DNA from: Chloroflexota bacterium
Lineage (GTDB): Bacteria; Chloroflexota; Anaerolineae; JACRMK01
Length of the DNA stretch: 32,175 nucleotides
Assembly: GCA_016200765.1 (NCBI GenBank)
Contig: JACQEC010000097.1
Coordinates: 1 to 32,175, forward strand
Direction: 5' to 3'
Shown one piece after another: positions 106 to 27,648 of the stretch. How positions within the stretch are numbered: the first letter of the stretch is position 1; each line of letters opens with the position of its first letter. Under the pieces are notes generated by a model. That model worked only from the letters and a program-made list of their open reading frames with translations, was not told the DNA's origin and did no database searches. Made by a program: the position numbers and the translations under genes.

Positions 106-133
106 AGCCGTGCCTCATTAAAGGGACACTACC
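1..133 (+). mobile_element. Right end of an insertion sequence (rest outside window)
   Basis: The first 105 bases encode a transposase C-terminus on the plus strand. They are followed by a 28-bp non-coding tail that ends in GGGACACTACC, which reads GGTAGTGTCC on the other strand and looks like an IS terminus. The tail abuts the truncated McrB-like gene directly, so the McrB stop codon seems to be formed at the junction. The exact last base of the element (about 133) and the target duplication cannot be fixed, because the other end is outside the window. Confidence 0.65.
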
Positions 134-2253: not shown

Positions 2254-2292
2254 GTTAGTTCCTTCTGCATTCCGTTTTGCGTTTCGCTGCGG

Positions 2293-2976
2293 TCATCGCC
2301 ACAGACGCTTCCTGCTTATCTCATCGCGAACGTAATCGAGGTAATGATCAATCGTCGCCGAATAAAATGGCTGCCGCATGCTGGGCTGATGCGGAAACGG
2401 AAATATATCCCGGCCCAAACGATTCTGGCTCGCTGTCAAGTGCGAGAAATGCCCCGGGCGGCCCGCCTCCTCATGCGCACGGTAATCCCAATACGCTTTC
2501 ACAAAAGGCGACGAGCCTGCGTTGATGATCAACGCCAGCACCGGTTCACCTAACGTGATGACCGGGACGCTTTCGTACGGAGCCAACTCAGTCGCCAAAA
2601 CGGGAAGCCATGCTTCAGCAAATCTTCGGAGAACCGATTTGTCGGCAATCTTTGTCGGCTGTACGACGAAAAAATTCTTGAGCAGGTTGGTCGCGTACAC
2701 GTTTTCTTCGAGCTGAATTCCCAAGCCGCTACACAACTTTGCAAGATAGGTCTTCAGGCTGCCGCCGCGATCGAGATTGAGGACGGTTCTGATCTTACGC
2801 CTACCCTTCTCACTCAGTACGGTTGGGTCCTGGCCGAGGATGATCAGCCGAACCTCTCCAGTGCCGCAATAGACCTTGGGAATTTGCAGGTTGACATCGA
2901 CGAACGTCCGAAGCTGGAGATCGGCCAGCAGTCTCTGTCGAGTTGCTTCAACGTGTGGTTCAATCACGATCAGCAC
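2293..2976 (-). CDS. Uracil-DNA-glycosylase superfamily-like protein
   Basis: The 227-aa product carries the two hallmark motifs of the UDG fold. The first is LIILGQDPTV (about 44-53), matching the GQDPYH-type water-activating loop. The second is FPHQPSM (about 194-200), at the place of the HPSP-type minor-groove loop. NVYATNLLKNFF (about 92-103) resembles the conserved VYITNLVK segment of family 4/5 enzymes. Only two cysteines are present, so the [4Fe-4S] cluster of family 4 is unlikely. The start is GTG at 2976; a TGA lies five codons upstream in frame, and a second GTG at 2967 is an alternative. A 105-bp gap separates it from brxL. It may excise uracil or, more interestingly, a modified phage base, but the substrate cannot be seen here. 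Base composition looks somewhat more AT-rich than the BREX core. Confidence 0.75.
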   Translation of the reverse strand: MLIVIEPHVEATRQRLLADLQLRTFVDVNLQIPKVYCGTGEVRLIILGQDPTVLSEKGRRKIRTVLNLDRGGSLKTYLAKLCSGLGIQLEENVYATNLLKNFFVVQPTKIADKSVLRRFAEAWLPVLATELAPYESVPVITLGEPVLALIINAGSSPFVKAYWDYRAHEEAGRPGHFSHLTASQNRLGRDIFPFPHQPSMRQPFYSATIDHYLDYVRDEISRKRLWR

Positions 2977-3081: not shown

Positions 3082-5103
3082 TTATGCCATCCCCAGCGCC
3101 TTCAGCGCCGCCCCCAGCGGCTCCGAATAGAAGATCGGGTCCACTTTTTCCAGCAGGTCTCCCGGCACGTCCAGGAACTGCCGCTTGTTGCTCACGGGGA
3201 TGAGCACCTTTTTCGCTCCGTTATCAACCATCACTTGCAGCGGCTCGATTAGAGAGCGCAGTGGCACAATATTGCCCTGGATCGTCATGTCGCCAAGTAC
3301 GACCAGTCCGGCCAGCGTCGTCCGGTCGCGCAGTAGCGAATAGAGCGCCACGAAGAAGGCGACGCTCGCCTGCGAACCTTCTTTGGCCTGTGCGAGATCG
3401 ACGATCTGGACGTGAAAGTCTGCGCTGTCGAGCTGCCGCTCGATACCCAGCATCGCTTTATTCGCGCGTACGTAATCAAACGCCGTCATGAGCGAATCGC
3501 GCATTAACCGGTCTGGGCTGCCGCTGATGCGCAGCTTGCCGGAGCCCATCATCATGGTGACTTCGATCCGGTGCAGCGCCACCACCTGCTCATTCGTCAA
3601 TGCCGCGCCATACACGCTCCCTGCCGGCAGCGGGTCCGACGCAATCAGATCGGCGCGTCCCTGTTCCGGCACGCCAACATAGCGTTCCTGCATCGTCTCG
3701 TTGTCAATGTACGAAAAAGACGTCTGGTAATACTCGAATGCCCCCATTTTCTTGAGCTGCTCTTTGACGCGCCGCCGCCCTTCCAGCGCAATTTCCACAT
3801 ACTCGCGCAACTCTTCTTTTGGAGGATTTCCTGATGGGTGCAATAGCTTAATCAGTCCAGAGACTGTCCGGCGGACGGCCTTCGCATCCCGCGTATTCAG
3901 ATCAGTACCTAGCGCGAAGTATTGATCGAGTTGGTTAGCGTAGTTGTGACGACGCAGCTCTCGGAATGCTTCAGCCAAATAGTCCACCACGAAGCCATAG
4001 TGCTCTGTCAAGAACTCGTTGCGCATCTTGGGTATTTCCCAGCCGGGGATATAAAAATGTAGGCGGTCAATCAGCGCCATATCTTGCATGTCTTCTGGCA
4101 GAGGTTGAAACAAGTGACTGGTACGCACCAACATATCCACCGGCTGATTGATGTTGCCAGCAAAGACTACCGAGGCTTCAGCGACCAACTCCTCGCGCCC
4201 ACGACTGAAGCTGCCGCTCTCCATGTAATCCTTCAATATCTGGATGGCCGTCTTGTCGTCGAATTTGATGCCGGCCACCTCGTCAAACGCGACCACATCC
4301 CAGCGCCCGACGAGGCCGACTTGGCGCGTGCTCATGTTGTAGAACAGGTTGGCAACGGTCGTCTTGCCGCCGGATATCAGGATGGCATACGGCGAGAGGT
4401 CGCGGTAGACGTACGACTTCCCGGTGCCGCGCGGCCCGAGCTCAATCAGGTTGTAGTTACGTTGGGTCATCGGGATCAAGCGCACCAGCATCAGCAATTT
4501 GATGCGCCGGCTGAACTGTGATGGCTCTAGCCCGATGCTACGGATGAGCAGATCAATCCATTCATCGGTCGTGAAAGATGTCCGGCGCGCACAATAGTCG
4601 TCCAGACTAAACGTCGCTAGCTGAATCGGTTTGAGCGCGGTGATATAGAAGGGGCGCGCCTTGTCGTTCTCGTCGCCCTCGCCGCGGAACTCGATTTCCA
4701 CCTGGGACCAGACACCACCCTCCAGCAGCCGCTCGTATTGGCGCACGAACTGATCGGGGATGTGAACAAAGCGGTGGCTGAAATTGACCAACTCGGCCCA
4801 ATACTTGGTGCCATCGAGGCGCACCAGCACCTTGTCGATGAACGTCTGCTTACCCCGCTCCTTCGTGCGCGACTGGCCCTTCATCGCCTCGTCAGGCCGG
4901 ATGATGCTGGAGGCCAATGTGCTGTTGACAAGCCGCAGCCCAGCCTCGATCGCGATGGGATCATCTGTCGCGCAATACTTGCCCAGCAGATACTCGAGCA
5001 CATAGCCCGGCACGTTGGCGCCGACCTTGACCTCGCGCACGAGGTCTTTGCGCACCACCCGCCCTGCAAAGATGTCAACGACTTTGCGATCCAACTCTGG
5101 CAT
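3082..5103 (-). CDS. brxL: BREX Lon-like AAA+ protein BrxL
   Basis: BrxL is the type 1 BREX effector-like protein, an AAA+ ATPase fused to a Lon-like C-terminal domain that forms ring assemblies on DNA. The 673-aa product has Walker A GPRGTGKS (about 223-230), Walker B VVAFDEVAG (about 270-278), and a Lon-type domain from about 560. In that domain NGAKKVLIP (about 629) carries the usual lysine region. The Lon serine position (GPSAG in Lon) aligns by eye with GSQAS here, so a serine protease dyad is doubtful. Start ATG 5103 is supported by GGAG in TAGGAGTTCTCATG, which overlaps the pglZ stop region; the gap to pglZ is 8 nt. Length matches the family. It is the last gene of the tight BREX transcription unit. 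Confidence 0.93.
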   Translation of the reverse strand: MPELDRKVVDIFAGRVVRKDLVREVKVGANVPGYVLEYLLGKYCATDDPIAIEAGLRLVNSTLASSIIRPDEAMKGQSRTKERGKQTFIDKVLVRLDGTKYWAELVNFSHRFVHIPDQFVRQYERLLEGGVWSQVEIEFRGEGDENDKARPFYITALKPIQLATFSLDDYCARRTSFTTDEWIDLLIRSIGLEPSQFSRRIKLLMLVRLIPMTQRNYNLIELGPRGTGKSYVYRDLSPYAILISGGKTTVANLFYNMSTRQVGLVGRWDVVAFDEVAGIKFDDKTAIQILKDYMESGSFSRGREELVAEASVVFAGNINQPVDMLVRTSHLFQPLPEDMQDMALIDRLHFYIPGWEIPKMRNEFLTEHYGFVVDYLAEAFRELRRHNYANQLDQYFALGTDLNTRDAKAVRRTVSGLIKLLHPSGNPPKEELREYVEIALEGRRRVKEQLKKMGAFEYYQTSFSYIDNETMQERYVGVPEQGRADLIASDPLPAGSVYGAALTNEQVVALHRIEVTMMMGSGKLRISGSPDRLMRDSLMTAFDYVRANKAMLGIERQLDSADFHVQIVDLAQAKEGSQASVAFFVALYSLLRDRTTLAGLVVLGDMTIQGNIVPLRSLIEPLQVMVDNGAKKVLIPVSNKRQFLDVPGDLLEKVDPIFYSEPLGAALKALGMA

Positions 5104-7714: not shown

Positions 7715-9757
7715 CTATCCTTTGACCAGCCCTTTGGCGCGCAGTTGCTGGCTGATTGAGCTCCACGCATACTTGCCATCCAGCAGGTCGGCCCAGGCCT
7801 TCTGCGCTTCCTTCCAGGGGACCAGCTCATACAACGGCGCAATGTTTAGCAGTACGCCATCGTTCAGGTCCGGGTGGAGGTCCAGCCGCGCAATGCGGTC
7901 AATTGTTTTCTGGAATGTCTTGATTTCATCAACCAGATCAGCCTGCGCGGCCAGCGCGCGCTCCTGTGCCCTGCGCGGCGCGCCTTTCAGGTCTGCTGCC
8001 ACAGACTGCAGGTCGGAAAGCCGCTGGGCTTCAAGATTGAGCTTGGCATCCACATAATCGCGGCCCACGCGGTAGAGTGTGTCTGGGCCCAAGCGATGAT
8101 AGTAGAGCCAGATGCCATAGTTGCGGTTGCGGGATTGCAGCAGCCAGTAGATCGGCGCTTTGCGCCGGCTCTTTGAGTAGCGCTTGATGTGGAAGTCGAA
8201 GAAGTGACGGGGCTGGCGGAAGTATTCGCGCAGGGAGCCGACGCCCAGAATCTCGCAGGCTTCCTGTTCGATTGCGTCCGCCCGCTCGCGCCACAAAAGG
8301 CCGAGGACGGCCCGCACTTGCTTGACGATGTCGTCGGGGTGACGCTCATCGTCGGGCAGGATGCCGTCCCAAGCTATTTTGAGCGGATAGGCCGCATCCG
8401 GAATCGTGGCGGGCGAGTCGTCGAGCGCGGCCGCATCCGGCAGGGTGATCACATTCGGGCGCGCTTGCAACCACGCCTCACTGACGATCGTTCCCGGCTG
8501 GGCTGGCAAGCCATCTGGCCCGACGAGCATGCCTGGCGAGCAACAAGGGAGCGGCTCGAACGGACCCTGCAATTCCGGTAACAGCGACTGGTCAAGCGCG
8601 AAGCGCACGTCCCAGCGACCAAAGGCACAGCCGAGGCACCACATGAGGAAACCTTCTATCGTCGCCTGTGGGTCGTCTGAAAGTAATTCGTCGGGTTCCG
8701 TTTCGGTGTCCACCTCTTGCGCATCTTCTTCGATGCCTGTGTTTTCGACCAACCCGTTGACGTCGCTAGACTCGACGAAATCCTCTGGCGCTAGGCCATA
8801 CAATTGGGCGACTCGTTGATCTATTCGGTTCTGCACTTCCATCAGTTGTGATTGGGTTATTTCATATGCCTCTGCGCTTAGTCTGGCGCCGGATATTGGC
8901 GACTCCCGCCCCAATCGGGCGAGAACAGTCAGCGAAAACGCGTGAGTTGTCTCGTCACTTTTATCCAAGCTGCGAGTCAATTCGTAAGCGCGAAACGACT
9001 GGGTTGACAAGTCTGTAGGGTCGCCCAATGGGGGGATAGGAGTTCGTTGCAGTACACCAACTTCATATGAACCAAATGCCATCTGCAATGTAAGCAGGTG
9101 ATGCCAAATAGCTGAATTCATCAATCCAAGTAGCGCAAGCAGATCTTCGTTGTTGTCATCACTTGTAAAGACTGAAGGCCCTTTGTGACTAAAAATGGAT
9201 TTCCCAGGTAGAGCTCTTGCGCTGAATCCCTTTTGTGTCCTAAGCGGATATGTCAAGCCTTGTCGAAAATAGTACTCACTGTTTGCAATACGCCTAGACC
9301 AATGAGTAGTTCCAGGATCAAACGGATTCTGGGTCACCCATTCTTTCAATTCTTTGCCATTATTGTGCCAGTTGATAACCAACTGGATATCACTGTAGAA
9401 TTTCGAATACTCGCCTCCCTTACTGAGCGGGATCCACGAGCTTCCTAAATCGGTAGTTTTAGCTTCCCACCACAATCTGACGAATCGAAAATCATCACTC
9501 GTGGATAGACCGATTTTTACCACACGATCTTTACTTTCAAAGCGAGGATATCGCCCAAATATTGAAAGCACCCTTTTGCTAGCCCAATATGCGATTGGTG
9601 AGCCCGGGATTTGCCTGAAAGCGTCCGCTTCTATGGCAAACCTGTTAGCAACCGACCGATTAGCATTCAGCGCCTGCACCTGCGCGGCTAAGCGCTCGCC
9701 CTTGTCCTCAATCTCGGTTTTCAACAGGCGGAAGAATACGGTCGGTTCAGCGCTCAT
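7715..9757 (-). CDS. Second PglX, C-terminal half (target recognition and tail)
   Basis: The 680-aa product matches the C-terminal half of the fused PglX in this window: IPGSPIAYWAS against IPGSPWVYWVS, DDFRFVRLWWE against DNFRFLRFWWE, NDGVLLNIAPLYELVPW against DDGVIVRLAPLQTVIPLW. It holds the target-recognition region (about 1-330), an acidic linker (EEDAQEVDTETEPDELL) and a conserved helical C-terminal part. It has no methylase motifs of its own. The start is ATG 9757, directly after a TTG that the ORF track uses; a TAA stands immediately upstream in frame, so this is an independent start 40 bp after the stop of the methylase half. It should pair with that half as a specificity subunit. Compared with PglX1 it lacks the last 25 or so residues. 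The recognition segment is clearly more AT-rich than its flanks. Confidence 0.85.
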   Translation of the reverse strand: MSAEPTVFFRLLKTEIEDKGERLAAQVQALNANRSVANRFAIEADAFRQIPGSPIAYWASKRVLSIFGRYPRFESKDRVVKIGLSTSDDFRFVRLWWEAKTTDLGSSWIPLSKGGEYSKFYSDIQLVINWHNNGKELKEWVTQNPFDPGTTHWSRRIANSEYYFRQGLTYPLRTQKGFSARALPGKSIFSHKGPSVFTSDDNNEDLLALLGLMNSAIWHHLLTLQMAFGSYEVGVLQRTPIPPLGDPTDLSTQSFRAYELTRSLDKSDETTHAFSLTVLARLGRESPISGARLSAEAYEITQSQLMEVQNRIDQRVAQLYGLAPEDFVESSDVNGLVENTGIEEDAQEVDTETEPDELLSDDPQATIEGFLMWCLGCAFGRWDVRFALDQSLLPELQGPFEPLPCCSPGMLVGPDGLPAQPGTIVSEAWLQARPNVITLPDAAALDDSPATIPDAAYPLKIAWDGILPDDERHPDDIVKQVRAVLGLLWRERADAIEQEACEILGVGSLREYFRQPRHFFDFHIKRYSKSRRKAPIYWLLQSRNRNYGIWLYYHRLGPDTLYRVGRDYVDAKLNLEAQRLSDLQSVAADLKGAPRRAQERALAAQADLVDEIKTFQKTIDRIARLDLHPDLNDGVLLNIAPLYELVPWKEAQKAWADLLDGKYAWSSISQQLRAKGLVKG

Positions 9758-9797
9758 CAATTATCCATTTCAACAGGCGGTCAAGCACGTCGCACCA

Positions 9798-11777
9798 TTA
9801 CTCGTAAGCATCCTCGCGCTTCCACTGATAAGGCTCTCCCTTCGCGGCCGCCCCACCAACCTCGCGCTTTTCCAGCACGTAGGCGGCCGTCTCCACCATG
9901 GCCGTATCCAGCACGCCGTAGCCCAGGTCGGCGACGACGTGGATGTGCGTGCGCGGGATCAATAACTCCTCGCGCCAGGCGCGAAACGAGGTCAGGAAAA
10001 ATCCGGTGCGGCTGGTGATGGCGCCGAGGAGGCCGCGCTCGCGCAGCAACTCAAGCCCGCGCTCGACGAAAGCCGCATACAGATCGTTCTTGGTGCGCGG
10101 GTAGTTGGCGTCAATATACGCCTTCGACCCCTTGCTCGCCGCGCCAAAGGGTGGGTTCATCCACACGATGTCGAACGGCTCGAGCAGCAGCTCCAAGAAA
10201 GCGAAGCCGCCCTCCGCATCATTCGCAAACAGCCGCCGGCGCACCGGGTGATCCTGTTCCGCGTGCGCGGCCAGGCGCCGCAGCGCTTCGAGCGCGCCCG
10301 GTTTGAAGCGTTCCTGCCAGAACTCGTAGTCCGTGACGAACGCCAGATCCAAATCCAGCTGTTTCGCCGGCGGGACAGCCGGTTCAAAGAGCTGGGCTTG
10401 CTCGTACTGGGACAAGTTCTGCCAGGCGCGCTCGACCTGCTTCGCCTCCTGTTCAAACGTCTGCTCGATCTTCAGGAGCGAGCCGATCTCGTCGGCTTGA
10501 TGCATCGCCTGCCACATCGCGCGCACGAGGTCGCCGGTGGCGGGGTTGGCGAGCGAAGCGATAAACTCGTCCAACAAGTCGTCCTCGGCCGGCATCGGCT
10601 CGGCCACAACCAGGTTCACCCGCCGGATGATAGGCCGCTGGGCAACCTTCAGGCCCGCCTGCTGGTACGCGCGCTGAGCGCGCAACCAGAGCGCCAGCGC
10701 CCCAATCTGCGCGGCGCGGCGGTCAATCTCGATGCCATGCAGATTGTGCTCCAGAATCAGCGCGGGGATAGCGCGCCGATACTCGGCCAGCGTCGGAAAT
10801 TCTTGCTGGAGCGCCGGCCCCAGGTCGGCGTCCGCGTAGGCTTCCTCGTAGATAACCTCAAATAGGTCATAGCCGTAGAGCAGAAAATGACCACTGCCCG
10901 AGGCCGGGTCGAGTGCGCGCAGCGTGCGTGGATCGCGTTTCGGGCGCGGCGGAATCGGCTGGCCCGGCATACGCACCAGATAGCGGCAGCGCTCCGTCAA
11001 CGCGGTATCGCCTTGACGCATCTCCCACCAGAGTCGCCCGAGCGTGTTATCCACGAGGAATTCGACGACGTAGCGCGGTGTGTAGAACTGGTTGCGGAAG
11101 GCCAGCTCGTAGCTGTTGCGCGGCGCCGCGCTCTCTTTGCGCGCCTGGTCGCGTAGTTCCTTGGGCGTGAAGAACTGGTAAATCCAGCCGATGGTTTCGT
11201 CCTGGCGCCAGGTCTCGGCGAGCGCGTCTTGGTTCAACTGATCGAGCGCCTGCTGTAAGGTGGCCGTGCCCGGGAAAAGAAGCGACTGCGGCAACGAGCG
11301 ATCGAACAGCACGCCGAGCAACCGCGAGAGGTCATCGTACAACAGCTCAAGGTACATTCGGTAGCCGCCATCGGGTTGAGCGCGTATCAACTCGGGGGAG
11401 ACGAGCGCGAATTGGGTGAAGCCCTTGGAGTGCGCACCCTCGCCGATCGAGGGTTGAATCAACTGGCGCTCGGGCTGCTCCATCAGCTTGAGCGCCGCCA
11501 GCCGATTGAGCGCGGTGAACGCGCTCTCACGCACGAAACGCGCAATGGCTTCAGCCGGTTTCGCTCCCTGTGCCTGATAGTGCTTGAGGGCGTCCTCGAT
11601 GGAGCGGCGCTCGGCCCGACCGGCCGCATCGAGATGGGCCAGCCGGTCCAAAGGCTCGATCTGGCCGTCAAGGTGAACGCCATAGGTAGCCTCGAGCTGG
11701 CGCCCGAGATCTTCCTCCAGCCATCGGCGGCAGGCCGCCATAGCCAGACGCAAAGCGTTCCGCAAGGGACTATCCAT
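9798..11777 (-). CDS. Second PglX, N-terminal half (adenine methyltransferase domain)
   Basis: The 659-aa product is the methylase part of a PglX/type IIG-like N6-adenine methyltransferase. It has the helical N-terminal region, SAM-binding motif DPASGSGHF (about 290-298) and catalytic motif IV NPPF (about 541-544). It ends with ETAAYVLEKREVGG and KREDAYE, where the fused PglX1 runs on into its recognition domain. The ORF track starts at 11891; I choose ATG 11777 (MDSPLRNAL), because it gives a normal PglX start and overlaps the preceding HEPN-like gene by only 8 nt. Paralogy to PglX1 is plain in NRLAALKLMEQ against NRLVAFKMMEA and DETIGWIYQFF against DETIGWVYQFF. It probably needs the downstream half for DNA recognition and together they would give 1339 residues, close to PglX1's 1325. 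Confidence 0.87.
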   Translation of the reverse strand: MDSPLRNALRLAMAACRRWLEEDLGRQLEATYGVHLDGQIEPLDRLAHLDAAGRAERRSIEDALKHYQAQGAKPAEAIARFVRESAFTALNRLAALKLMEQPERQLIQPSIGEGAHSKGFTQFALVSPELIRAQPDGGYRMYLELLYDDLSRLLGVLFDRSLPQSLLFPGTATLQQALDQLNQDALAETWRQDETIGWIYQFFTPKELRDQARKESAAPRNSYELAFRNQFYTPRYVVEFLVDNTLGRLWWEMRQGDTALTERCRYLVRMPGQPIPPRPKRDPRTLRALDPASGSGHFLLYGYDLFEVIYEEAYADADLGPALQQEFPTLAEYRRAIPALILEHNLHGIEIDRRAAQIGALALWLRAQRAYQQAGLKVAQRPIIRRVNLVVAEPMPAEDDLLDEFIASLANPATGDLVRAMWQAMHQADEIGSLLKIEQTFEQEAKQVERAWQNLSQYEQAQLFEPAVPPAKQLDLDLAFVTDYEFWQERFKPGALEALRRLAAHAEQDHPVRRRLFANDAEGGFAFLELLLEPFDIVWMNPPFGAASKGSKAYIDANYPRTKNDLYAAFVERGLELLRERGLLGAITSRTGFFLTSFRAWREELLIPRTHIHVVADLGYGVLDTAMVETAAYVLEKREVGGAAAKGEPYQWKREDAYE

Positions 11778-12597
11778 GGGCCGCGTTCGCCTCGACTTGT
11801 GCGGCGTATGCTTTGATGCGTTCGACAACCAATTCGTCGAGCGCCAGGCAAATATGGCGTATCGTGTCAACCGACTGCTTGGCCGCCGCAAACGTAATCG
11901 CTTGCGGCTCGCCGTCCGGGTTGTCCTGCGGCCGGTCGGCTCGGTGCACGATGTCGTTGCGGCGTGTCACCGTCCGATCGAGCGTGTCCATGATCTCTCT
12001 TCTCTCGGCGTTCATCCCCAGGTGGGTAACGATTTGCTCCCACGGCTTCTCGAGCCCATGCAGCCGCCCCACTACCGCTACGCCTTTGCGCGTGCTTAGA
12101 TACTTGAAATTCGTCAGGCTCAAGATCCGGGTCGAAATATAGTCGGCGGCGCTGGCGTCTTTGATCAGCCGCAGCGTCTCATCCAGTGTGAAGGTCAGAT
12201 CCTTGAAATAGTCAACCACCGTGGGGTCGTTGGTCGGTATGAAATCGCGTCCGACCGCGCGGATGATGATCGGCAGGTTCGCCCGCAGCAGGGCCGGCAG
12301 GAACGTGTCCAGCGCCGTACACGCCATCACGATCGACTGCCGCAGCAAGTGCGCCAGCGTGGCGCGCCGCAGCGTCGAGCGCGCCATCTGCGCGCGCTCG
12401 CGCACCAGTCCCAGAAACAGCTCGTTGGTCACGACCATCAGGTCTTCTTCGCGCGTGGCGTGCACCAGCAGACGCAGGGCGCCGACCATCTCGCCTTCGG
12501 TCAAAATCTGATCGTCCGCGTCCAGCAAGCGGTAAATCTGCAAGAGCAGTTCGGCAGGCCGAATATTGTCTTCGAAGATTTGGCGCGGGTTAGACAT
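11770..12597 (-). CDS. HEPN-like protein inside the BREX operon
   Basis: The 275-aa, mostly helical product is not a standard BREX protein. Near its C-terminus it has TRRNDIVHRADR, which contains RNDIVH (about 213-218), an R-x4-H motif typical of catalytic HEPN ribonuclease domains; a polar residue after the Arg and a hydrophobic pair before the His are as expected. The first half resembles helical HEPN-associated regions, but I cannot name a family. It starts 4 nt after the brxC stop (ATG 12597) and its end overlaps the next gene by 8 nt, so it is translationally embedded in the operon. An RNA-cutting or abortive role is inference; a structural or regulatory partner for the split PglX is another option. 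Confidence 0.7.
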   Translation of the reverse strand: MSNPRQIFEDNIRPAELLLQIYRLLDADDQILTEGEMVGALRLLVHATREEDLMVVTNELFLGLVRERAQMARSTLRRATLAHLLRQSIVMACTALDTFLPALLRANLPIIIRAVGRDFIPTNDPTVVDYFKDLTFTLDETLRLIKDASAADYISTRILSLTNFKYLSTRKGVAVVGRLHGLEKPWEQIVTHLGMNAERREIMDTLDRTVTRRNDIVHRADRPQDNPDGEPQAITFAAAKQSVDTIRHICLALDELVVERIKAYAAQVEANAAHG

Positions 12598-12601: not shown

Positions 12602-15600
12602 CTACTCCAGGACGATCTTGGCGCCTGATTCCAACAACTTGAGCAGGTGATCGCGCAAGCGGTTTAGCAGCTCCTCAACCTCCTGCGGCGTGCTAAGCGC
12701 CTGGTATGAACTCACGACTTCGGCCATGCGCACGCGCTTGATTTTCTGCTCCGGCTGCAAGAGCTCTTGCATGGCGTGGATAACCCGTTCCCGTAGTGCT
12801 GGCATAGCGTCGAGATCCGACTCCATCTCGGGCAGGGTCGCGCGGCAGTGACCGCAGGCCAGCGCGCCAGCCGGTAGCTCTAGTTGATCACAGGCGCGTG
12901 CTTGCAAGGGCGCGAGCAGAGGGTCTTGCATCGTCTCTGGAACCGACGCCCAGTCGGGCAGGCCTTTGACGAACTCGATGGCCCGAGTGTACGCTTCGGC
13001 GCGTGTCTGGTGACCAGCGCGATAGAGCGCTGTGTACGCGGCTTCGACGTCGCCTGCGATCGCATCGATCTGCGCCGCTTCGCGGTAGAGCGCTAGCGAC
13101 TGCAAGGTCTCGTCAAGGCTCTTCATCTGCGCTTGCAGCGTAGCATCTGCGGCCCGCTCGGCCAACACGGGCCAAAGCTGGTTGAGCGCGGTGCGCGCGC
13201 GCTGCAAGCGCCGCAGCCCGGCCGGATCGGTCGCCTTGCGAATTTCCTGCGTCTGTTGGCGCAACTGCTTAAAGGTTTCGCCCTCGCCAGCCAGAATGTT
13301 GACGACGTCATCTGATGGGCTTTGGATAATCGTGTTGAGCTGCGAGCGATACTCGGCCAGAAGATCAGCGCCCGGCAGGTCATTCGCCGCCGCTTTGGCG
13401 ATAACCTCCAGCAGGGCTTCGCGCTCGGCGGAGGCCAGCTTCTGGAACCCCTGCGCGATCGCGTTCTCGTCAACATCCACCTCTTCGCCGGTCAGCGCTT
13501 CGTAGCGCTTGGCCGCGCCGACGAGCGTCTGCAGGTCGGGGGCCTTGCGCGGAGCAAAGGATGCCGCGCGAAAGGCATTGGCGCCGGTGAAGACCGGCCG
13601 AACTTGAGGGTCCAGATGATGACGGAAGCGCCGGCCCTGGTAGGTGACTTCGATCGTGCCTTTGCGCAGTAGGCTGGCGAGCACGATCCAGACCGTCTCT
13701 GGCTCCCAGCCGTACGGTATGGCGCGGAAGTGGTCTTCGAGCATGCGCCCGGTCACCTTGTTGCCGTACGAGTGCTCGCGTTGCACATAGGCGACGATCT
13801 CTTTTGCGATCGGCGCGTTATCGTTGATGATGAATTTGCCGCGGTCCTGAATGACCAAACCCAGGCCCTCGTCGCCAGCATAGAAGACTTTGGCGAGGCC
13901 GTTCAGGTTGGCCGCCTTGAGAATCTCTTCGGCCTCATCGCCCTTGATTGGACGCGCGCCCAATTCAAGTTGTGGGTAGAGCTGGGGCATGGCAAAATCA
14001 AACAGGGCATGGAAAATCTCCGACACCATCTTGCCAAGTTGAGCGCCCTCTCGGGGCGCACCGCCCAAAAAGCCGGTGCCCCGCGCGAGCTGATCTAACA
14101 GCAGGTTTTTCAGCCGCTCTTCGTGCCGGAGCACGGCCTGCTTCTCCGCCGCCAGACTGGCGGCCTCCTCGTCCGAGTGCAGCTTGCCCTGCGCGCGCAT
14201 CTGGTCGTATTTGGCCGCCATCTGTTTGGAGCGATAAACTTCTGCTAGCAGTTCGTCAATATCGTCTGTCAGGGCAAAGACCCAAAATAGGCGCGCCGGC
14301 GCTTGCCGGCTCTCATTCTGTGTCGCTTGGCACTCGGCGGCAAAGCCAGCGGGGCTATCGCTTAGCTTCAGCTCGAGCGGAATCTGCGCTTTGTTCGAGG
14401 TAATGTTGCGGCCTTGCCAAATGACGTTCAGAGCAAACGTGCGTCGCTTGTAGAGGTGACGGCTCAACGCAGGCTCTTGGAAGATACCCGCCAGCGCCCC
14501 TTCCATGAGATCGTTGCGCTCTCTTAACGAGGGGCTAAGGCTATTGCGCTCGGTCGTCCAGGTCTTCTCCTGCGCCGTCAGCAGTTTCCAGCCGTCCTCC
14601 GTCTGCCGGATGAACTGCCGCTTTTCGAGTTGTTGGATGGCTTGCTCAACCTCGGCCAGGGGTGATTTGGCATCCACGGCGTCGTAGAGCAGGACCGCAA
14701 TGTTGCGCTCGCTGCGCGGCAGGCCGCGCGTGTACTCCATCAGGCTGATGGCTTTGGCCGTGCGCACGACCCACGGTTCGCCCGAGAATATCTCCTGGAT
14801 CTCGTTCAGGTCGCGCTGGCGCTCGGAGGGTAGATTGGTATAGAGCAGGTCGTAAATGCGATCGAGGGTGACGAGCGTCCCGATGGGCGCTTCGGCAAGC
14901 CTGGTTTGTTTACTGACCAGCATTTCGTAGGCCTGCTTGATGATGGTGCGACTGCTGCCGCCGAAATGGCGGGGCGCGCCCGGCTGGAGGCGCAAGCCCG
15001 AGACAATATCAATCGAGAGTTCGATGAAGTGCGGCAGATAGGGATAGAACTGGACGAATTCGTCCGCGTTGAGATCGAAGCGAACCTTGTCCGAGCGTTC
15101 GGCCTGGATGTGGGTGCGGAGCTGGGCCCCCGACGTTCGGTAGAGTTCACGCAGCAGCGCTTCGGCCTCGGGCTTCTTGGGGAGCACGCGCTTGGTCGCG
15201 ACCTCACGAATATCACTGGGCACCATGTCAATATGGTGACGGAAACGGTCTTGCAGTCGCGCGAGCTCTACGCGCTTATCGCGGATGGCGGCGACGACCT
15301 CGTCGAGTTTTTCCTGGGACGTGACGACAATCCAGACCGGCGCCACCGCCCGGCGCGCTTCGACGCGGTTCTTGCCCTCCTTGCCGAACTGCTCGACGAT
15401 GGCGCGCAGATTTTCGATTTTTTCGGCGCTGCGCGCGACATATTGGCCGACCTCGTCAATCACGAACATCATGGTGCGGCCGGGATAGCGGCGCGCCGCC
15501 AGCTCAAACGTCCGCTGTACCAGATAGCGGACGTTGATATCGGCGGGGTTGGTAATCGTCTGCGCCCACGACTCGGGCCGCGGGTACGTCTTGGGGTCAA

Positions 15601-16333
15601 TCTCATGCAAGGTGGCGCTGGCGCGCTGGATCTTCTGCGCGCCTTTGCGGACGCGCTGCCAGGTGCGATACGCATCGGGCGGCACTTCCTTCAGCGTGAC
15701 AGGCACCCCGGCGTCGCTTTCGCCGTCGCCCGAGACCTGGCCGCCGAAGAGCCTGGCGCACGCCTGCACGAAGGCGCCCAGCCGTCCCTCGGATTCCAAC
15801 TCGATCTCGAGCGCAGCTACGTCGTAGTCCTGTGCGTAGTCCAACTCGCGCAGGAGCACGCTGTACATGATCTCGGCCAGCGATTCGTTGGCGCGGCGCA
15901 CGGCCCGGTCAACCTGCACGTCGAACATGATGACCTGCGCGGGAATGAGTTTGTTGATGAAATCCAGATGGTTGGCGATGCCCTCGACCAGCGGGTCATG
16001 CGGCGACTGCCGGCGAAGTTGCTCGATGAACAGCGCGGCCGCCGGTTTGGCGCGCAGTGTCGGGTTGGCGACGATATATCCGAAGTTCTTGGCAAACGAC
16101 GACTTGCCGGAGCCGAAGAAGCCCGAGACCCAGACGCCCACCGCCTCGGTCGGCTCCCCTTGGCTGTCGGCGATTGCCGTGAGGAGTTCGAGGTACTGCT
16201 CTTTGATATTCTTCGTCGCGACGTACTCGACGATTTCGCCGTAGACCGTCTGCTCGTCCCGCTGGTCGAGCTTGATGACTTCCTCGATCGGTTGCGAGAG
16301 GTCACGGGCTATCAGGTCGCCAATCGTTTTCAT
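12602..16333 (-). CDS. brxC: BREX P-loop ATPase BrxC
   Basis: BrxC is the large ATPase (DUF499/PglY-related) of BREX. The 1243-aa product has Walker A GFFGSGKS (about 71-78) in the family context VGVWVSGFFGSGKSSFAKNF, and Walker B MMFVIDEVGQYV near residue 290. The N-terminus MKTIGDLIARDLSQPIEEVI and the segment LDQRDEQTVYGEIVEYV match the usual BrxC start. The ORF track begins at 16516, inside pglX. ATG 16333 has GGAG six bases upstream and gives the family-typical start; ATG 16348 or 16351, overlapping the pglX stop as TGATGATG, are alternatives adding five or six residues. Length is normal. In type 1 operons brxC usually precedes pglX; here it follows it. Confidence 0.93.
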   Translation of the reverse strand: MKTIGDLIARDLSQPIEEVIKLDQRDEQTVYGEIVEYVATKNIKEQYLELLTAIADSQGEPTEAVGVWVSGFFGSGKSSFAKNFGYIVANPTLRAKPAAALFIEQLRRQSPHDPLVEGIANHLDFINKLIPAQVIMFDVQVDRAVRRANESLAEIMYSVLLRELDYAQDYDVAALEIELESEGRLGAFVQACARLFGGQVSGDGESDAGVPVTLKEVPPDAYRTWQRVRKGAQKIQRASATLHEIDPKTYPRPESWAQTITNPADINVRYLVQRTFELAARRYPGRTMMFVIDEVGQYVARSAEKIENLRAIVEQFGKEGKNRVEARRAVAPVWIVVTSQEKLDEVVAAIRDKRVELARLQDRFRHHIDMVPSDIREVATKRVLPKKPEAEALLRELYRTSGAQLRTHIQAERSDKVRFDLNADEFVQFYPYLPHFIELSIDIVSGLRLQPGAPRHFGGSSRTIIKQAYEMLVSKQTRLAEAPIGTLVTLDRIYDLLYTNLPSERQRDLNEIQEIFSGEPWVVRTAKAISLMEYTRGLPRSERNIAVLLYDAVDAKSPLAEVEQAIQQLEKRQFIRQTEDGWKLLTAQEKTWTTERNSLSPSLRERNDLMEGALAGIFQEPALSRHLYKRRTFALNVIWQGRNITSNKAQIPLELKLSDSPAGFAAECQATQNESRQAPARLFWVFALTDDIDELLAEVYRSKQMAAKYDQMRAQGKLHSDEEAASLAAEKQAVLRHEERLKNLLLDQLARGTGFLGGAPREGAQLGKMVSEIFHALFDFAMPQLYPQLELGARPIKGDEAEEILKAANLNGLAKVFYAGDEGLGLVIQDRGKFIINDNAPIAKEIVAYVQREHSYGNKVTGRMLEDHFRAIPYGWEPETVWIVLASLLRKGTIEVTYQGRRFRHHLDPQVRPVFTGANAFRAASFAPRKAPDLQTLVGAAKRYEALTGEEVDVDENAIAQGFQKLASAEREALLEVIAKAAANDLPGADLLAEYRSQLNTIIQSPSDDVVNILAGEGETFKQLRQQTQEIRKATDPAGLRRLQRARTALNQLWPVLAERAADATLQAQMKSLDETLQSLALYREAAQIDAIAGDVEAAYTALYRAGHQTRAEAYTRAIEFVKGLPDWASVPETMQDPLLAPLQARACDQLELPAGALACGHCRATLPEMESDLDAMPALRERVIHAMQELLQPEQKIKRVRMAEVVSSYQALSTPQEVEELLNRLRDHLLKLLESGAKIVLE

Positions 16334-16350
16334 AGGGGCTCCGGGCATCA

Positions 16351-19300
16351 TCAGTCTCCCTGATAAACGTCTTCGAGGCCGTGTGCGATGGCAAAGGATT
16401 TGTTCGTCCGACACGCCTTGCGCACCCGGTCGGGCCAATAGTGCATGGCGATGTGACTCCAGTCCAACTCGCCGTTCTTCAGCTTCTCCCAGCACTTCTT
16501 CGGCTCGCTCCCCCACAGCGGGATGACCGTCTGCAGGGGCGCCAGGCGCACGATCACGCCGTCGTCAATCCAGTTTGGCGCGGGCTCGTAGCCGCCGCTG
16601 GTGATGGCTTCGAGCGCCTTGGCGAACTCGGCCAGTTCGGCGGCCAACTCCCGTAAAGCGCCCATCTGCCGTTCGATGTCCCGGCGTTGTTTGCCCGCTG
16701 CGGCGCGCGCGACCTCGGCATCGGCCAGGGCCAATTCGACCGCGCGGCGCTTGGTGTCGAGGTACGGCTCGCGTTGCAGGGCGTAGAACGTGTCTTTGGT
16801 GATGCGTTCGTGGAAGAGGACGAAGCCATAGCGGCGACCGTTGCTCTGGATGGGCCAATAGACCGGGCGCTTGCGGTACCACGGGATATGCCAGCGCGTG
16901 AAGAAGTCTCGTGCAAGAAAATGGCGCAGGTCGCCGTTTGCGCCCAGGCGGATGACTTCCTGTGCCGCATCCGCGCCGAGCATCAGATCGAGCGCCTTGC
17001 CCGCCAGCGTCGTCAGGTCGCGCGGGTGGTGCTCATCAAGCACGGTGATGCCATCCGGCACCGCCAGTTGCTGCAGGGCCTTTTCCACGTTTGCCGCGAA
17101 CAGGTGCCGGCCGTCCTGTGCGTCTACATAGGCGAACTGATCTTTCGACCCGACCAATTCATCGAACTCGCCCTCCGCAGGCATGGGCAGCGAGCCGATG
17201 GCAAAGTCTTCGCGGCGGTAGATGGCCGAGCCGAGATCGCCCGCCACCCCCGGCCGGAAGCGCCCGAGCACCACGCCGACGGCGTACGAGATCCAGCGCA
17301 CGGCAAGGTCTTCGCGGGTCAACGACTCCGCTATATCATCGTCATTGCCGCCGGCTTCATCCATATCTGCCAAAGTCTCGTCCGCGGTCGCGTTTGCGGC
17401 ACCATTTAATTCCGCTTCAATCGCTATGCGCTCTTGATTAGCAATCTTGTAAAGCTGATAAACATCCTCGTCGATCTGCGCCTCGATATCCTTGGATTGC
17501 AGTCGCATGGCCTGTACTCTCTCAAGACCGGTTTGCCAGCTTAGCGGGACAACGAAGTCATAAGTCAATTCCGATGTCGTAGACGTTACCTTTGCCAAGG
17601 AGGTTGCCAGGCCGACCAATCCACTCAATCGTCTGTCGGAGACGGCAGGTATGGGAACCCTAGCGATATCACCAACCTGAAAGTTTACGGTCGGGTTTAT
17701 CAACTTGAGAGCGTACGCAGCGAATGAGGAATTCATAACTCCCAACACCAACGCCAAGTCCCGTGGAAACAGAGTTGAACCCGCAACATCAAAAATGAAG
17801 CCACCCGGCGAAATGCGGGAAGTAGAAGTCCCGGACGTAAGGTAGGAATATGTCACACCTTCACGGAAGTAAAAGTCGACCGATTTGATGATTCGTGACC
17901 AACCAGAGTTACCGTAGAGAGGGGCGGCCCATGCCTTGAGTTCACGTCCGTCCCGCCGATAATTGATCACATAATCTTGGTTCCCAAACCATCTCTTAAA
18001 CGCTCCACCTTTCATATACGGGAACCAGCGCATGCCGCGGTTACTAGCCTCGCTGGTTGTCTTACATCCAAACGCAATCATCTTGCGGCCAACTTCCCAC
18101 CAAAAACGGAGAAACCTGAAATTGTCAGCGGTCGCCAATCCTTGGCGAGGCGGAGCAACGGTCGCCAGTCCCGGCAGCTCCTTGAAGAGCGCGCGAATGG
18201 AATCGCTCACCCAATACACCCATGGACTACCCGGAATGGCATCAAAGGCCGACTGCGCGACACGGTATATGAGGCGATGAGTTGCGCCTGCCTGCAGCGC
18301 CGCCACGGCCTGCTCGAACACAGTACGCTTGGCGTCCGAATCGGGCTCGTGCACGAGACGAAAGTAGGTGCCGATGCTGGCTTGGCGGCGCGACGTGTCA
18401 GGCTCGCGGCGCATGGCGAAGATCGTCGTGTTGACCTTCTCGCCGGATATCTCTGCAAACGCGCGCGGACCCACATGAGCCATAGACTCAATGGCGAACT
18501 CTTGCAACAGCCCCTTGCGCAAGCCTTCATACGACGAGATAAACATGAACGACTGTTGCGTGATCATCCCGACCCGCCCACGCTCGCCGGCAAACTCACC
18601 GCAGCGTTGGATGAACGCCGCATACAAGTCACCCTTTGCTTCGGGGTAGGCATCCGCCACGAAGTCCGCCAGCGTCTCGTTCATGTTCCGGCGGCTCATG
18701 TAGGGTGGATTGGCTACCACGCAGTCGTAGCGGCGCAGCATCAGGTTCAGCACACGCAACCCTTTCGCGGCCTCGCGCACAAAATAGCGCTCGTCGCTCC
18801 CCTGCACAGCGTGCGACCGCGCGAATGCGTCCAGCGCCTGCACAAGCTGTGCCGCCAGCAGGTCCCAGTACCCCGCCTGCGCCGCCTCGCGCTCAAATAG
18901 CGCCGCGGCTCTGCCAAACAGATCCAGCTGCCGCCCTTCCTGCTCGAAGCGCTTCTCCTCGTCGGCAATCAACGCGCCAATCTCCGATTCGAGCCGCAGT
19001 AGCGACCCCAGTTGCGCGCTATCCTCCAGCCGCGCCCATAGCGCCCGCAGCAGTCGTTCGTAGATCGGCCGGCTGAACTTCATCTCGCGAATGAACGCAT
19101 TGAGCCGTGTCCCGTTGAGCGTCAACACGTCTGCGCAAGCCAAGTTGTGATCGCTGATCTCGGCAGCCTTATTGAGGCTTTTCGCCTTCAGGTAGAGCGT
19201 AAGCGCCGATAGTTGAACCGCGCGCAGGTCAATGTCGATCCCGAACAGGTTGTGTTTGATGATTGCCGCGGGGATCTCCGCTTCAGAAAGAACCGAGGGT

Positions 19301-20328
19301 GCCGCCGGCCAGCCAATGTCGCCCGCATGCGCGAGCTCCTCGCGATACATCTCGGCGAACAGGTCGAACGCCACCAGTCCGAAGTGCATCGTCCCGCACG
19401 CGGGGTCCAACAGGGTGATTTCCTTTACAGCACGTAGCGGCTCACGGGGCATCTCACCGCCGGCTGGCACGAGGTACCGCAAGGCTGCGCCCAGGTGCGA
19501 GTCCGGGTGCATCTGCACCCACAGCCGTCCGAGCGTGTTCTCGACAATGAACCGCACGATCCAGCGTGGCGTAAACAATTGCGTCGCCGCCGGTATGTCC
19601 TCGCGTCGTATTTTCTTCTTCTGCCTGAAGAGCCGTTCGAAAACCTCTCGCTTTTCCTCTTCGCTAAAGAACTGGTACACCCACCCGATCGTCTCGTCCG
19701 CAGGCCACGCTGGAGCCAACCCGGCGGCATTTAGCAGTTCGAGCACGCCGCGCAGAGCAACCGGCCGCGGGAAGAGCCGCGAGGGCAAATCGTCGGGGTC
19801 GAACAGCACGTTCAGCTGTTGCGAAATCTGCCCGGCCTGCCAGAGCAGAAAGTGACGGTAGGCTGTGTCGGTCTGGCCGGCCTGCGCCAGCGCGTAGTCG
19901 GCGGCGTGCTCGGCGAGGTAGAACTTGAAGCCGTTGGAGTCGGCGCCGCGCCCGACTGCTTCGCGGACGAGATGGCGCGCCTCCATCATCTTGAAGGCGA
20001 CCAGCCGGTTCAAGTGCGTGAAAGCAATCTCCTTGACCAGCTTATCAACCGCCTCTCGCTTGTCAAGCCCGGCGATGACCTCGTCCGTCAGGAACTGCTT
20101 CAGGCGGTCGTAGGTCGCGCGTGTTTCCGGGTCCGCCAGCGCGGGCAGGTTGTTGGGCGGCTCGAGCGCGCCGTCCGGGTGCAGGCCGTACACGCCGACC
20201 AGCAGGTCGCGCGCCTCACACGCCAGCCGCTCGCGCGCGGCCAACGCAAAGTTGTGGATCGCGCCGCGCACCTCGTCGCCAAGGTATTGGTCCTGAAACA
20301 TGTGGGGGGCGATGGTCTGGTTCGTCAT
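16351..20328 (-). CDS. pglX: BREX adenine-specific DNA methyltransferase PglX
   Basis: PglX methylates an adenine in a non-palindromic site to mark host DNA. The 1325-aa product has the N-terminal helical region (1-250), SAM motif LLDPACGTMHFGL (about 307-319), catalytic motif NPPY (540-543), a recognition region (about 700-1000), an acidic linker (DEAGGNDDDIAES), and a C-terminal part with a coiled-coil-like stretch (GKQRRDIERQMGALREL) and ELDWSHIAMHYWPDRVRKAC. Length is in the normal PglX range. ATG 20328 lies 12 nt after the brxB stop, with only a weak ribosome binding site. The recognition region (about 17,400-18,150) is visibly more AT-rich than the rest. It is a paralogue of the split methylase further along the operon; unlike standard type 1 it precedes brxC. 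Confidence 0.94.
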   Translation of the reverse strand: MTNQTIAPHMFQDQYLGDEVRGAIHNFALAARERLACEARDLLVGVYGLHPDGALEPPNNLPALADPETRATYDRLKQFLTDEVIAGLDKREAVDKLVKEIAFTHLNRLVAFKMMEARHLVREAVGRGADSNGFKFYLAEHAADYALAQAGQTDTAYRHFLLWQAGQISQQLNVLFDPDDLPSRLFPRPVALRGVLELLNAAGLAPAWPADETIGWVYQFFSEEEKREVFERLFRQKKKIRREDIPAATQLFTPRWIVRFIVENTLGRLWVQMHPDSHLGAALRYLVPAGGEMPREPLRAVKEITLLDPACGTMHFGLVAFDLFAEMYREELAHAGDIGWPAAPSVLSEAEIPAAIIKHNLFGIDIDLRAVQLSALTLYLKAKSLNKAAEISDHNLACADVLTLNGTRLNAFIREMKFSRPIYERLLRALWARLEDSAQLGSLLRLESEIGALIADEEKRFEQEGRQLDLFGRAAALFEREAAQAGYWDLLAAQLVQALDAFARSHAVQGSDERYFVREAAKGLRVLNLMLRRYDCVVANPPYMSRRNMNETLADFVADAYPEAKGDLYAAFIQRCGEFAGERGRVGMITQQSFMFISSYEGLRKGLLQEFAIESMAHVGPRAFAEISGEKVNTTIFAMRREPDTSRRQASIGTYFRLVHEPDSDAKRTVFEQAVAALQAGATHRLIYRVAQSAFDAIPGSPWVYWVSDSIRALFKELPGLATVAPPRQGLATADNFRFLRFWWEVGRKMIAFGCKTTSEASNRGMRWFPYMKGGAFKRWFGNQDYVINYRRDGRELKAWAAPLYGNSGWSRIIKSVDFYFREGVTYSYLTSGTSTSRISPGGFIFDVAGSTLFPRDLALVLGVMNSSFAAYALKLINPTVNFQVGDIARVPIPAVSDRRLSGLVGLATSLAKVTSTTSELTYDFVVPLSWQTGLERVQAMRLQSKDIEAQIDEDVYQLYKIANQERIAIEAELNGAANATADETLADMDEAGGNDDDIAESLTREDLAVRWISYAVGVVLGRFRPGVAGDLGSAIYRREDFAIGSLPMPAEGEFDELVGSKDQFAYVDAQDGRHLFAANVEKALQQLAVPDGITVLDEHHPRDLTTLAGKALDLMLGADAAQEVIRLGANGDLRHFLARDFFTRWHIPWYRKRPVYWPIQSNGRRYGFVLFHERITKDTFYALQREPYLDTKRRAVELALADAEVARAAAGKQRRDIERQMGALRELAAELAEFAKALEAITSGGYEPAPNWIDDGVIVRLAPLQTVIPLWGSEPKKCWEKLKNGELDWSHIAMHYWPDRVRKACRTNKSFAIAHGLEDVYQGD

Positions 20329-20340: not shown

Positions 20341-20931
20341 TCAATCTACGTAGACTTTGGTGTGATAGCTGCCGCGCCCTTCGTTCTCGGCGATGCCCAT
20401 GAAGCGCAGGCTGGCGCCTTCGGTCGTGGCGGGCAGGAACAGCACACAGGGCACATGCGTGCGGCCTTTCATCTCGTCGAGCAGTTTCGAGACGCGGTAG
20501 ATATTCGGCGCCAGCGCGCCCGCGCGCCAGATAAACGCGAGGTCTTTATGCGGGTTCAGACTGCGCAACTGCTCCGCCAACAGCCCGGGCAGAGGGCGGA
20601 AATCGGGGTCCGACAGGTAGTCGTTGATCTGCTGTTGCGCCGCGTCGAAGCCTGCCTGCGCCTCCAGGCTGATGACGGCATCCAGCCCCTCGGATTCGTC
20701 GATCGCGCGCCACAACAGATCGGCCAGCGAGACGTAGACAATGCACCGGATGTGGTCGTTCTCCAGCCGCGTTTTGAGCAGGGCCACCTCGCCGCGCATC
20801 GCCCACTCTTCCGCCGGGGTGTAGCAGAAGGTGGCGAAGGGCAGGTCGTGGTACATGTAGTGCCCCAGCGGGTCGCGGCGCAAGTCGGCCTCAAGCCGCT
20901 TGATGCGTTCTTTTAACGAGGACATCGGCAT
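20341..20931 (-). CDS. brxB: BREX protein BrxB (DUF1788)
   Basis: BrxB is a small core protein of unknown biochemistry needed for defence. The 196-aa product begins MPMSSLKERIKRLEADLRRD and contains LPFATFCYTPAEEWAMR, both typical of the DUF1788 family, and it ends with RGSYHTKVYVD, a conserved C-terminal type. Length fits the family (about 190-200 aa). ATG 20931 overlaps the end of brxA by 41 nt; ATG 20925 is a possible shorter start. Overlap with brxA and a 9-12 nt gap to pglX place it in one transcript with them. Confidence 0.92.
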   Translation of the reverse strand: MPMSSLKERIKRLEADLRRDPLGHYMYHDLPFATFCYTPAEEWAMRGEVALLKTRLENDHIRCIVYVSLADLLWRAIDESEGLDAVISLEAQAGFDAAQQQINDYLSDPDFRPLPGLLAEQLRSLNPHKDLAFIWRAGALAPNIYRVSKLLDEMKGRTHVPCVLFLPATTEGASLRFMGIAENEGRGSYHTKVYVD

Positions 20932-23804: not shown

Positions 23805-24353
23805 TCAGGGACTGAAGCCTAGTCGGCGTTCCTTCAGGCTGACGAACTGGCCCTTGCCGATCACCAGATGGTCGAGCACGTCAATATCCAGCAGCTTCCC
23901 GGCGGCGATGAGCTGCTCGGTCATGTGCACGTCTTCTGGTGATGGGTTCGGGTCGCCCGAGGGGTGGTTGTGCACCACGATCAGGCTGGCCGCGTTGTCC
24001 ATGACCGCGGGCCGGAAGACCTCGACCATACGCATCGTGATCGTGTTCAGCGAGCCCTGGTAGATCATCGTCGTGGAGAGCACCCGCCCGCGCGTGTTCA
24101 AACTGATCGCGCGTAGCTGCTCGTGCGGGAGATCCTCCATCTCCAAGCGCAAGAAGTTATAGGCGTCGAGCGGGTGGCGGATCAGCGTCGCCTCGGCGAG
24201 CGATTGGCCGGTGCGCGTCTCGTAAATGCGTGAGGCTTCGGCCAGGAAGCGGCGCAACAGGTGCAACATGGCCGCGTCGTCGGGCTTCAAGAAAGTGAGC
24301 TGTTGTTCGGGCACGCGTCGTCCGCCGGTAGGACGCAGTCGTTCGGGTGGCAT
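23805..24353 (-). CDS. RadC-like JAB domain protein
   Basis: The 182-aa product is a JAB/MPN metalloprotease-fold protein of the RadC (DUF2466) type often carried by plasmids and integrative elements. The metal-binding signature VVHNHPSGDPNPSPED (about 126-141) is complete, preceded by ISLNTRGRVLSTTMIYQGSL and followed by LDHLVIGKGQFVSLKERRL, all standard. It lacks the N-terminal helix-hairpin-helix part of chromosomal RadC, as mobile versions do. Start ATG 24353 sits 9 nt after an extended -10 box. Despite its name, a role in DNA repair is not established for this family. Confidence 0.87.
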   Translation of the reverse strand: MPPERLRPTGGRRVPEQQLTFLKPDDAAMLHLLRRFLAEASRIYETRTGQSLAEATLIRHPLDAYNFLRLEMEDLPHEQLRAISLNTRGRVLSTTMIYQGSLNTITMRMVEVFRPAVMDNAASLIVVHNHPSGDPNPSPEDVHMTEQLIAAGKLLDIDVLDHLVIGKGQFVSLKERRLGFSP

Positions 24354-24362
24354 CGTCCCCCG

Positions 24363-24391
24363 AGTATAGCAAGCGCCCCACTCAAAGGGAA
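24363..24391 (-). promoter_or_regulatory. Extended -10 promoter for the radC-like gene
   Basis: Minus strand: TTCCCT (24391-24386), 17-nt spacer, TATACT (24368-24363) with TGC directly before it. This is the same architecture and partly the same sequence as the promoter of the 115-aa gene. ATG lies 9 nt downstream, so the transcript would be leaderless or nearly so. Confidence 0.6.
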
Positions 24392-24423
24392 TAGGGCAAC
24401 CCCGGCCCGGGCCGCGCGAGGGC

Positions 24424-26137: not shown

Positions 26138-26144
26138 AGTCTCT

Positions 26145-26173
26145 GTTATACCGCAGTGCGAGTCGAATGTCAG
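26145..26173 (-). promoter_or_regulatory. Promoter of the 88-aa gene / ATPase unit
   Basis: Minus strand: CTGACA (26173-26168), 17-nt spacer, TATAAC (26150-26145), then 7 nt to ATG. The -35 hexamer overlaps the left target duplication of the ISKra4 element, so the insertion sits exactly at the promoter's upstream edge and has left it intact. Confidence 0.6.
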
Positions 26174-27623: not shown

Positions 27624-27648
27624 CAAGTCATCCGTAGGGCGCGGTAGC

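What the first reader, a model, noticed from the sequence alone, without database searches (positions are those of the whole stretch)
11770..12597. HEPN-like putative RNase embedded between brxC and the split pglX2
The RNDIVH motif and a helical fold suggest an active HEPN protein. It is coupled on both sides (4-nt gap, 8-nt overlap), so its dosage follows the BREX proteins. An RNase tied to a methylation-based system could be a fail-safe that is released when BREX is inhibited, like the toxins guarding some restriction systems.
Basis: partly seen in the sequence, partly recalled or inferred. Interest (0 to 1): 0.6.

Follow-up and report, generated by a model that had tools for sequence, protein, structure and literature searches.

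The report
HEPN RNase gene inside BREX operon
A predicted RNA-cutting (HEPN) protein sits in the middle of a BREX phage-defence operon, and its close relatives were found only in such operons, almost always in the same slot, in bacteria of many phyla; it is probably a built-in second line of defence, a kind of arrangement already described in general terms.

Summary
The ORF at 11770-12597 (minus strand, 275 aa) is a RiboL-PSP-type HEPN protein (Pfam PF18735, above the curated cut-off; 17 of 17 family members match). It has R213-N-D-I-V-H218 at the end of a predicted helix, lies 4 nt after brxC and overlaps the split pglX2 by 8 nt.

Seventeen homologue loci from a scan of 84,980 species genomes, plus one found by profile, are all in type-1-like BREX operons. 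Counting the window, 17 of 19 sit exactly between brxC and pglX. In a BrxC tree all carriers fall in one clade that also holds two HEPN-less members; HEPN and BrxC distances correlate (r = 0.75). More distant PF18735 relatives keep R-N-x-I-x-H, so active-site conservation does not depend on the motif-seeded scan.

In other BREX loci the brxC/pglX slot holds other defence cargo (a DUF262 BrxU-like gene; an ATPase pair; a type I methylase with an OLD-like ATPase). Best reading: an accessory toxic RNase effector restrained by, and triggered through, BREX. The identity is well supported; the 'fail-safe' trigger is inferred. HEPN backup effectors in BREX are already reported in general terms (PMC12839542).

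The parts
11770..12597 (-). HEPN (RiboL-PSP type) protein, 275 aa, predicted endoRNase
   Evidence: Pfam PF18735 31.5 bits > cut-off 28.4; 17/17 family members match; alignment A2; AlphaFold2 pLDDT 83.4
11944..11961 (-). Catalytic motif R213-N-D-I-V-H218 (Rx4H)
   Evidence: translation; invariant in alignment A2 (partly biased by the seed pattern); R-N-x-I-x-H kept in more distant relatives found by profile
12602..16351 (-). brxC (BREX P-loop ATPase), likely start near 16351; stop 4 nt before the HEPN start
   Evidence: NCBIfam NF033441 643 bits, cut-off 400; PADLOC BrxC
9798..11777 (-). pglX2, N-terminal (methyltransferase) half; start overlaps HEPN end by 8 nt
   Evidence: PADLOC PglX positions 3-659/1332; NCBIfam NF033452 6-615/1210
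7715..9760 (-). pglX2, C-terminal half
   Evidence: PADLOC PglX positions 666-1265/1332; NF033452 636-1208/1210; the same split in L010, L012, L020, L051
5112..7766 (-). pglZ
   Evidence: Pfam PF08665; PADLOC
3082..5103 (-). brxL
   Evidence: Pfam BrxL_ATPase/BrxL_N/Lon_C; TIGR02653 979 bits
16351..20328 (-). pglX1, second and full-length PglX, between brxB and brxC
   Evidence: NF033452 813 bits, cut-off 500
20341..20931 (-). brxB
   Evidence: PADLOC BrxB 77 bits
20891..21697 (-). brxA
   Evidence: PADLOC BrxA 136 bits

Best explanation
The gene encodes an active HEPN endoribonuclease that is a dedicated accessory effector of one clade of type 1 BREX systems. It is made together with BrxC and PglX by translational coupling and is held silent either by contact with BREX proteins (BrxC being the first candidate) or by its own conformation. 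When BREX detects infection that it cannot stop, or is itself blocked by a phage inhibitor, the HEPN dimer becomes active and cleaves RNA, stalling the cell so that the phage cannot multiply. Shown here: HEPN family membership, conserved active-site motif, fixed position and coupling in the operon, restriction of the close family to BREX loci, co-inheritance with BrxC, and no separate antitoxin gene beside it. Inferred: RNase activity, toxicity, who restrains it, what triggers it, and which RNA is cut.
For: PF18735 HEPN match above cut-off, 17/17 members. All 17 homologue loci of the genome scan lie in BREX operons, as does one more found by profile in the phylum of L015; none was found in viral contigs or plasmids. 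brxC-HEPN-pglX order in 17 of 19 including the window; brxC-to-HEPN gap 1-5 nt in 13 of 17 measurable loci. BrxC tree: all carriers in one clade (support 0.97) with only two HEPN-less members nested, fitting one gain and one loss. HEPN/BrxC distance correlation r = 0.75, p = 0.0002, equal median identity of 52%. More distant non-BREX relatives keep R-N-x-I-x-H. The same slot carries other defence cargo in other BREX loci. PrrC precedent, and RiboL-PSP HEPN listed as active and distantly related to AbiF/AbiD (PMC3710099). BREX HEPN backup effectors proposed in general (PMC12839542).
Against: No activity, toxicity or interaction data. No significant fold match. BREX clade members without HEPN exist (L048, L049), so BREX does not need it. 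HEPN fits BrxC less tightly than the core proteins fit each other (r = 0.75 against 0.98 for BrxC/PglZ), so it may exchange between loci now and then. Motif invariance among the close relatives is partly circular because RRNDIVHR was a scan seed.
Confidence: 0.55

Rival explanations
1. The HEPN protein is a primary effector rather than a fail-safe: BREX recognition of unmodified phage DNA directly switches on the RNase through the BrxC/PglX/PglZ complex, so RNA cleavage is part of the normal response.
For: Fixed place and tight coupling in the operon; co-inheritance with BrxC; restriction to BREX loci; no known inhibitor or sensor domain in the HEPN protein itself.
Against: Related BREX loci lack it or carry other cargo in its place, so the core system does not depend on it; PglZ, the nuclease of type 1 BREX (PMC12839542), is present.
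Confidence: 0.22
2. It is an autonomous abortive-infection gene that merely uses the brxC/pglX slot as a safe, well-expressed insertion site and senses phages on its own, like BxaP or PARIS.
For: The slot carries unrelated defence cargo in other BREX systems; BxaP, a HEPN-like protein in type 3 BREX, works without BREX (PMC10799925); the wider PF18735 family occurs without any BREX gene in the adjacent 1.5 kb.
Against: The close family was never found outside BREX (17/17 plus one), and its tree largely follows BrxC, unlike a freely moving cassette.
Confidence: 0.2
3. It is a non-catalytic helical subunit that helps assemble the BREX complex, with the HEPN motif kept for structure.
For: No nuclease data; a conserved N-terminal segment outside the HEPN core suggests a binding surface.
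Against: R, N and H of the catalytic motif are kept even in more distant relatives, as expected for an enzyme; related BREX loci do without it.
Confidence: 0.03

Closest known systems
RiboL-PSP HEPN family (Pfam PF18735; Anantharaman et al. 2013, PMC3710099)
   Same: Profile match over the HEPN core and the Rx4H motif; the family is predicted active and distantly related to AbiF/AbiD.
   Different: This subfamily has a conserved N-terminal part outside the Pfam match (residues 1-82) and was found only inside BREX operons.
HEPN 'backup suicidal effectors' of BREX and BREX-related systems (Rakesh & Krishnan 2026, PMC12839542)
   Same: Standalone HEPN modules in or beside BREX core loci are described there and given the same proposed role.
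   Different: The main text does not mention the RiboL-PSP family or a brxC/pglX position (terms searched); whether their supplement lists this subfamily could not be read.
PrrC with the PrrI type I restriction system
   Same: HEPN RNase gene embedded in a methylation-based defence operon; PrrC is held silent by that system and released when it is inhibited (PMC3710099).
   Different: PrrC carries its own ABC ATPase domain; this protein has none. Restraint by BREX has not been tested.
PARIS (AriA/AriB) and BrxU embedded in type 1 BREX
   Same: Accessory effector embedded in a BREX locus. In plasmid BREX loci the slot between brxC and pglX holds a DUF262 gene or an ATPase plus unknown gene.
   Different: Unrelated proteins; PARIS has an ATPase sensor and a TOPRIM nuclease and works without BREX (PMC9122126).
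BxaP (PMC10799925)
   Same: HEPN-like (DUF4145) protein inserted in a BREX locus, likely abortive infection.
   Different: Type 3 BREX, different HEPN family, also found in type I R-M loci of phages and shown to act without BREX.

Membership tests
HEPN superfamily, RiboL-PSP family (PF18735) | Profile match above the curated cut-off | tested here: met
   31.5 bits vs 28.4; 17/17 family members match at E<=0.01
HEPN superfamily, RiboL-PSP family (PF18735) | Rx4-6H motif at the end of the third core helix | tested here: met
   R213-NDIV-H218 at the end of helix 199-219 in the model; kept in more distant relatives. Which helix is 'third core helix' is my reading of the secondary structure
HEPN superfamily, RiboL-PSP family (PF18735) | Four-helix HEPN fold by structure comparison | tested here: inconclusive
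   All-helical confident model, but best Foldseek E-values are 0.51 (PDB) and 0.09 (viral); HepT chains and a phage HEPN protein appear only among weak matches
HEPN superfamily, RiboL-PSP family (PF18735) | Dimer with a composite active site and RNase activity | not testable with these tools
   No dimer modelling or assay available
Type 1 BREX (host operon) | brxA, brxB, brxC, pglX, pglZ, brxL together | tested here: met
   All six found on one strand, with an extra pglX
HEPN-MNT toxin-antitoxin | Adjacent MNT nucleotidyltransferase antitoxin gene | tested here: not met
   Neighbours are brxC and pglX2 with no gap for another gene; no MNT found in the flanking genes scanned
PrrC-like guard RNase | ABC ATPase fused to HEPN | tested here: not met
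   Only PF18735 found in the 275-aa protein
PrrC-like guard RNase | Held inactive by the partner defence system and released on its inhibition | not testable with these tools
   Needs co-expression and infection tests

The most novel reading that the evidence does not exclude
A clade of type 1 BREX is a combined DNA- and RNA-targeting system: the HEPN protein is a standing subunit of the BrxC/PglX/PglZ machinery, and recognition of unmodified phage DNA directly switches on RNA cleavage.
Probability: 0.2. Interest if true: 0.65.

Novelty: new member of a known kind. Interest (0 to 1): 0.42.

Why it matters
How BREX stops phages, and what happens when a phage blocks BREX, is still open. A HEPN RNase whose close relatives were found only inside one BREX clade, in one slot, across many phyla, is a clean test case: deleting it or mutating H218 in a complete operon would show whether BREX has an RNA-targeting arm and what sets it off. 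It also marks the brxC/pglX junction as a place to look for unknown accessory effectors.

Tried and rejected
Viral contigs and plasmids gave no relatives of the HEPN protein, so a phage or plasmid cassette origin has no support here. PDB sequence searches with the protein and its profile found nothing. Foldseek against PDB and viral models gave no significant match. A toxin-antitoxin pair was rejected because no second gene fits between brxC and pglX2 and no MNT lies among the scanned neighbours. A pseudogene or chance ORF was rejected on family, synteny and conservation. The idea that the split pglX2 is merely a broken gene is unlikely, because the same split recurs (L010, L012, L020, L051). 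One call failed on a stop-containing range and two on handle format.

Full report
OBSERVATION. The ORF lies on the minus strand, 11770-12597, ATG start, 275 aa. R213 and H218 are numbered correctly. The brxC stop and the HEPN ATG are 4 nt apart, with GGAG just before the brxC stop codon as a possible ribosome site; the HEPN stop overlaps the pglX2 ATG by 8 nt (read directly). The operon runs brxA-brxB-pglX1-brxC-HEPN-pglX2(N)-pglX2(C)-pglZ-brxL. PglX1, BrxC and BrxL pass NCBI cut-offs; PglZ is divergent and passes none there, though it passes Pfam's.

IDENTITY. Pfam PF18735 (RiboL-PSP HEPN) matches above its cut-off (31.5 vs 28.4 bits), and all 17 aligned homologues match it. A phage family of unknown function also matches (phrog_13503, E 4.5e-10). 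The AlphaFold2 model is all-helical (pLDDT 83.4, pTM 0.80), with residues 51-73 poorly modelled; the motif is at the end of helix 199-219, followed by helix 236-274. Foldseek gave nothing significant: HepT-type chains appear among PDB matches at E 4.3-4.7, and a phage MAE_28990/MAE_18760-like HEPN at E 0.99. The HEPN assignment therefore rests on profile evidence plus motif placement.

IS THE ACTIVE SITE CONSERVED? RRNDIVHRAD is invariant in the 17-row alignment, but RRNDIVHR was one of the two seeds of the scan that found most rows, so that is partly circular. Independent support: profile searches, which do not require the motif, found more distant relatives in the phyla of L019 (Gimesia) and L021 (Leptolyngbyaceae), and all eleven that were examined (L061, L062, L064-L072) carry R-N-x-I-x-H in the matching region. 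The 3.3-3.6 kb fetched around those relatives held no recognisable BREX gene, so the wider family is not BREX-bound.

CONTEXT. One scan of 84,980 species genomes gave 17 homologue loci, labelled Chloroflexota, KSB1, Rhodothermia, Gammaproteobacteria, Nitrosospira, Acidobacteria, Planctomycetota, Cyanobacteria and an unclassified bacterium. All are in BREX loci. One more came from the phylum of L015 by profile (L052). With the window, 17 of 19 are between brxC and pglX. L011 has brxC before and a Schlafen/AlbA_2 gene after, then the contig ends; L022 begins at a contig edge and is followed by pglZ. The gap from brxC is 1-5 nt in 13 of 17 measurable loci, using alignment-supported starts. L021 is split into two ORFs in a low-coverage contig and may be a sequencing error or a decayed copy.

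CO-INHERITANCE. In a BrxC tree with 17 HEPN-bearing and 14 HEPN-less loci, all carriers fall in one clade (support 0.97) that also holds two HEPN-less Chloroflexota-phylum loci, sisters to each other. This fits one gain and one loss, with the caveat that carriers were sampled by HEPN presence and non-carriers mostly from one phylum. HEPN and BrxC distances correlate (r = 0.75, p = 0.0002), and their median identity is equal (52%); core pairs fit more tightly (BrxC/PglZ r = 0.98). In 400 genomes of the window's phylum, 18 had a BrxC match and 2 a HEPN match.

THE SLOT. In L048 (same BrxC clade) the slot holds, on the other strand, a type I methylase-specificity fusion, an OLD-like ATPase and an unknown gene. 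In plasmid BREX loci it holds a DUF262 gene (CP110543) or an ATPase plus an unknown gene (NZ_CP093256). So HEPN occupies a site used for accessory defence cargo.

MECHANISM. Shown: family, motif, position, coupling, BREX restriction, co-inheritance, no adjacent antitoxin. Inferred: RNase activity, restraint by a BREX protein, trigger and target. The PrrC precedent (PMC3710099) and the general proposal for BREX backup effectors (PMC12839542) make a BREX-restrained suicide RNase the leading model. Work on other type 1 systems shows BrxC, BrxB and PglZ forming a complex (PMC13326643), which would be a natural docking site, but no HEPN protein was in those complexes. Direct activation during normal restriction and an autonomous Abi gene are the rivals.

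NOVELTY. HEPN effectors in BREX are known as a class, so this is a new member of a known kind. What is added here is a defined subfamily with a fixed slot, one host clade and co-inheritance.

Noticed in passing
window 7715-11777 (-); L008, L010, L012, L020, L051: pglX2 is split into N and C halves in several unrelated loci, so the split looks like a natural arrangement; in L008 a 1222-aa WD40-repeat ORF and a 186-aa ORF lie between the halves.
   Followed up: partly
L009 3381-5318 and 10829-12766: Two pglX N-halves on either side of brxC and HEPN share 91% DNA identity over 937 bp, which could allow recombination between specificities; the window itself shows no such DNA repeat.
   Followed up: partly
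window 16351-20328 (-): A second, full-length pglX between brxB and brxC, also in L008, L009, L010, L020 and L049.
   Followed up: partly
window 23805-31044 (-): RadC, two TraD/TrwB-like coupling proteins, an ArdC-like protein and a replication-relaxation protein: the BREX operon appears to lie on a conjugative or mobilisable element.
   Followed up: no
window 133-2976 (-): An AAA (dynein-type, McrB-like) protein of 706 aa and a 227-aa protein without Pfam match downstream of brxL, possibly a type IV restriction pair.
   Followed up: no
L011 8197-9363 (+): A Schlafen AlbA_2 plus HATPase gene directly after the HEPN gene: two predicted RNase effectors in one BREX slot.
   Followed up: no
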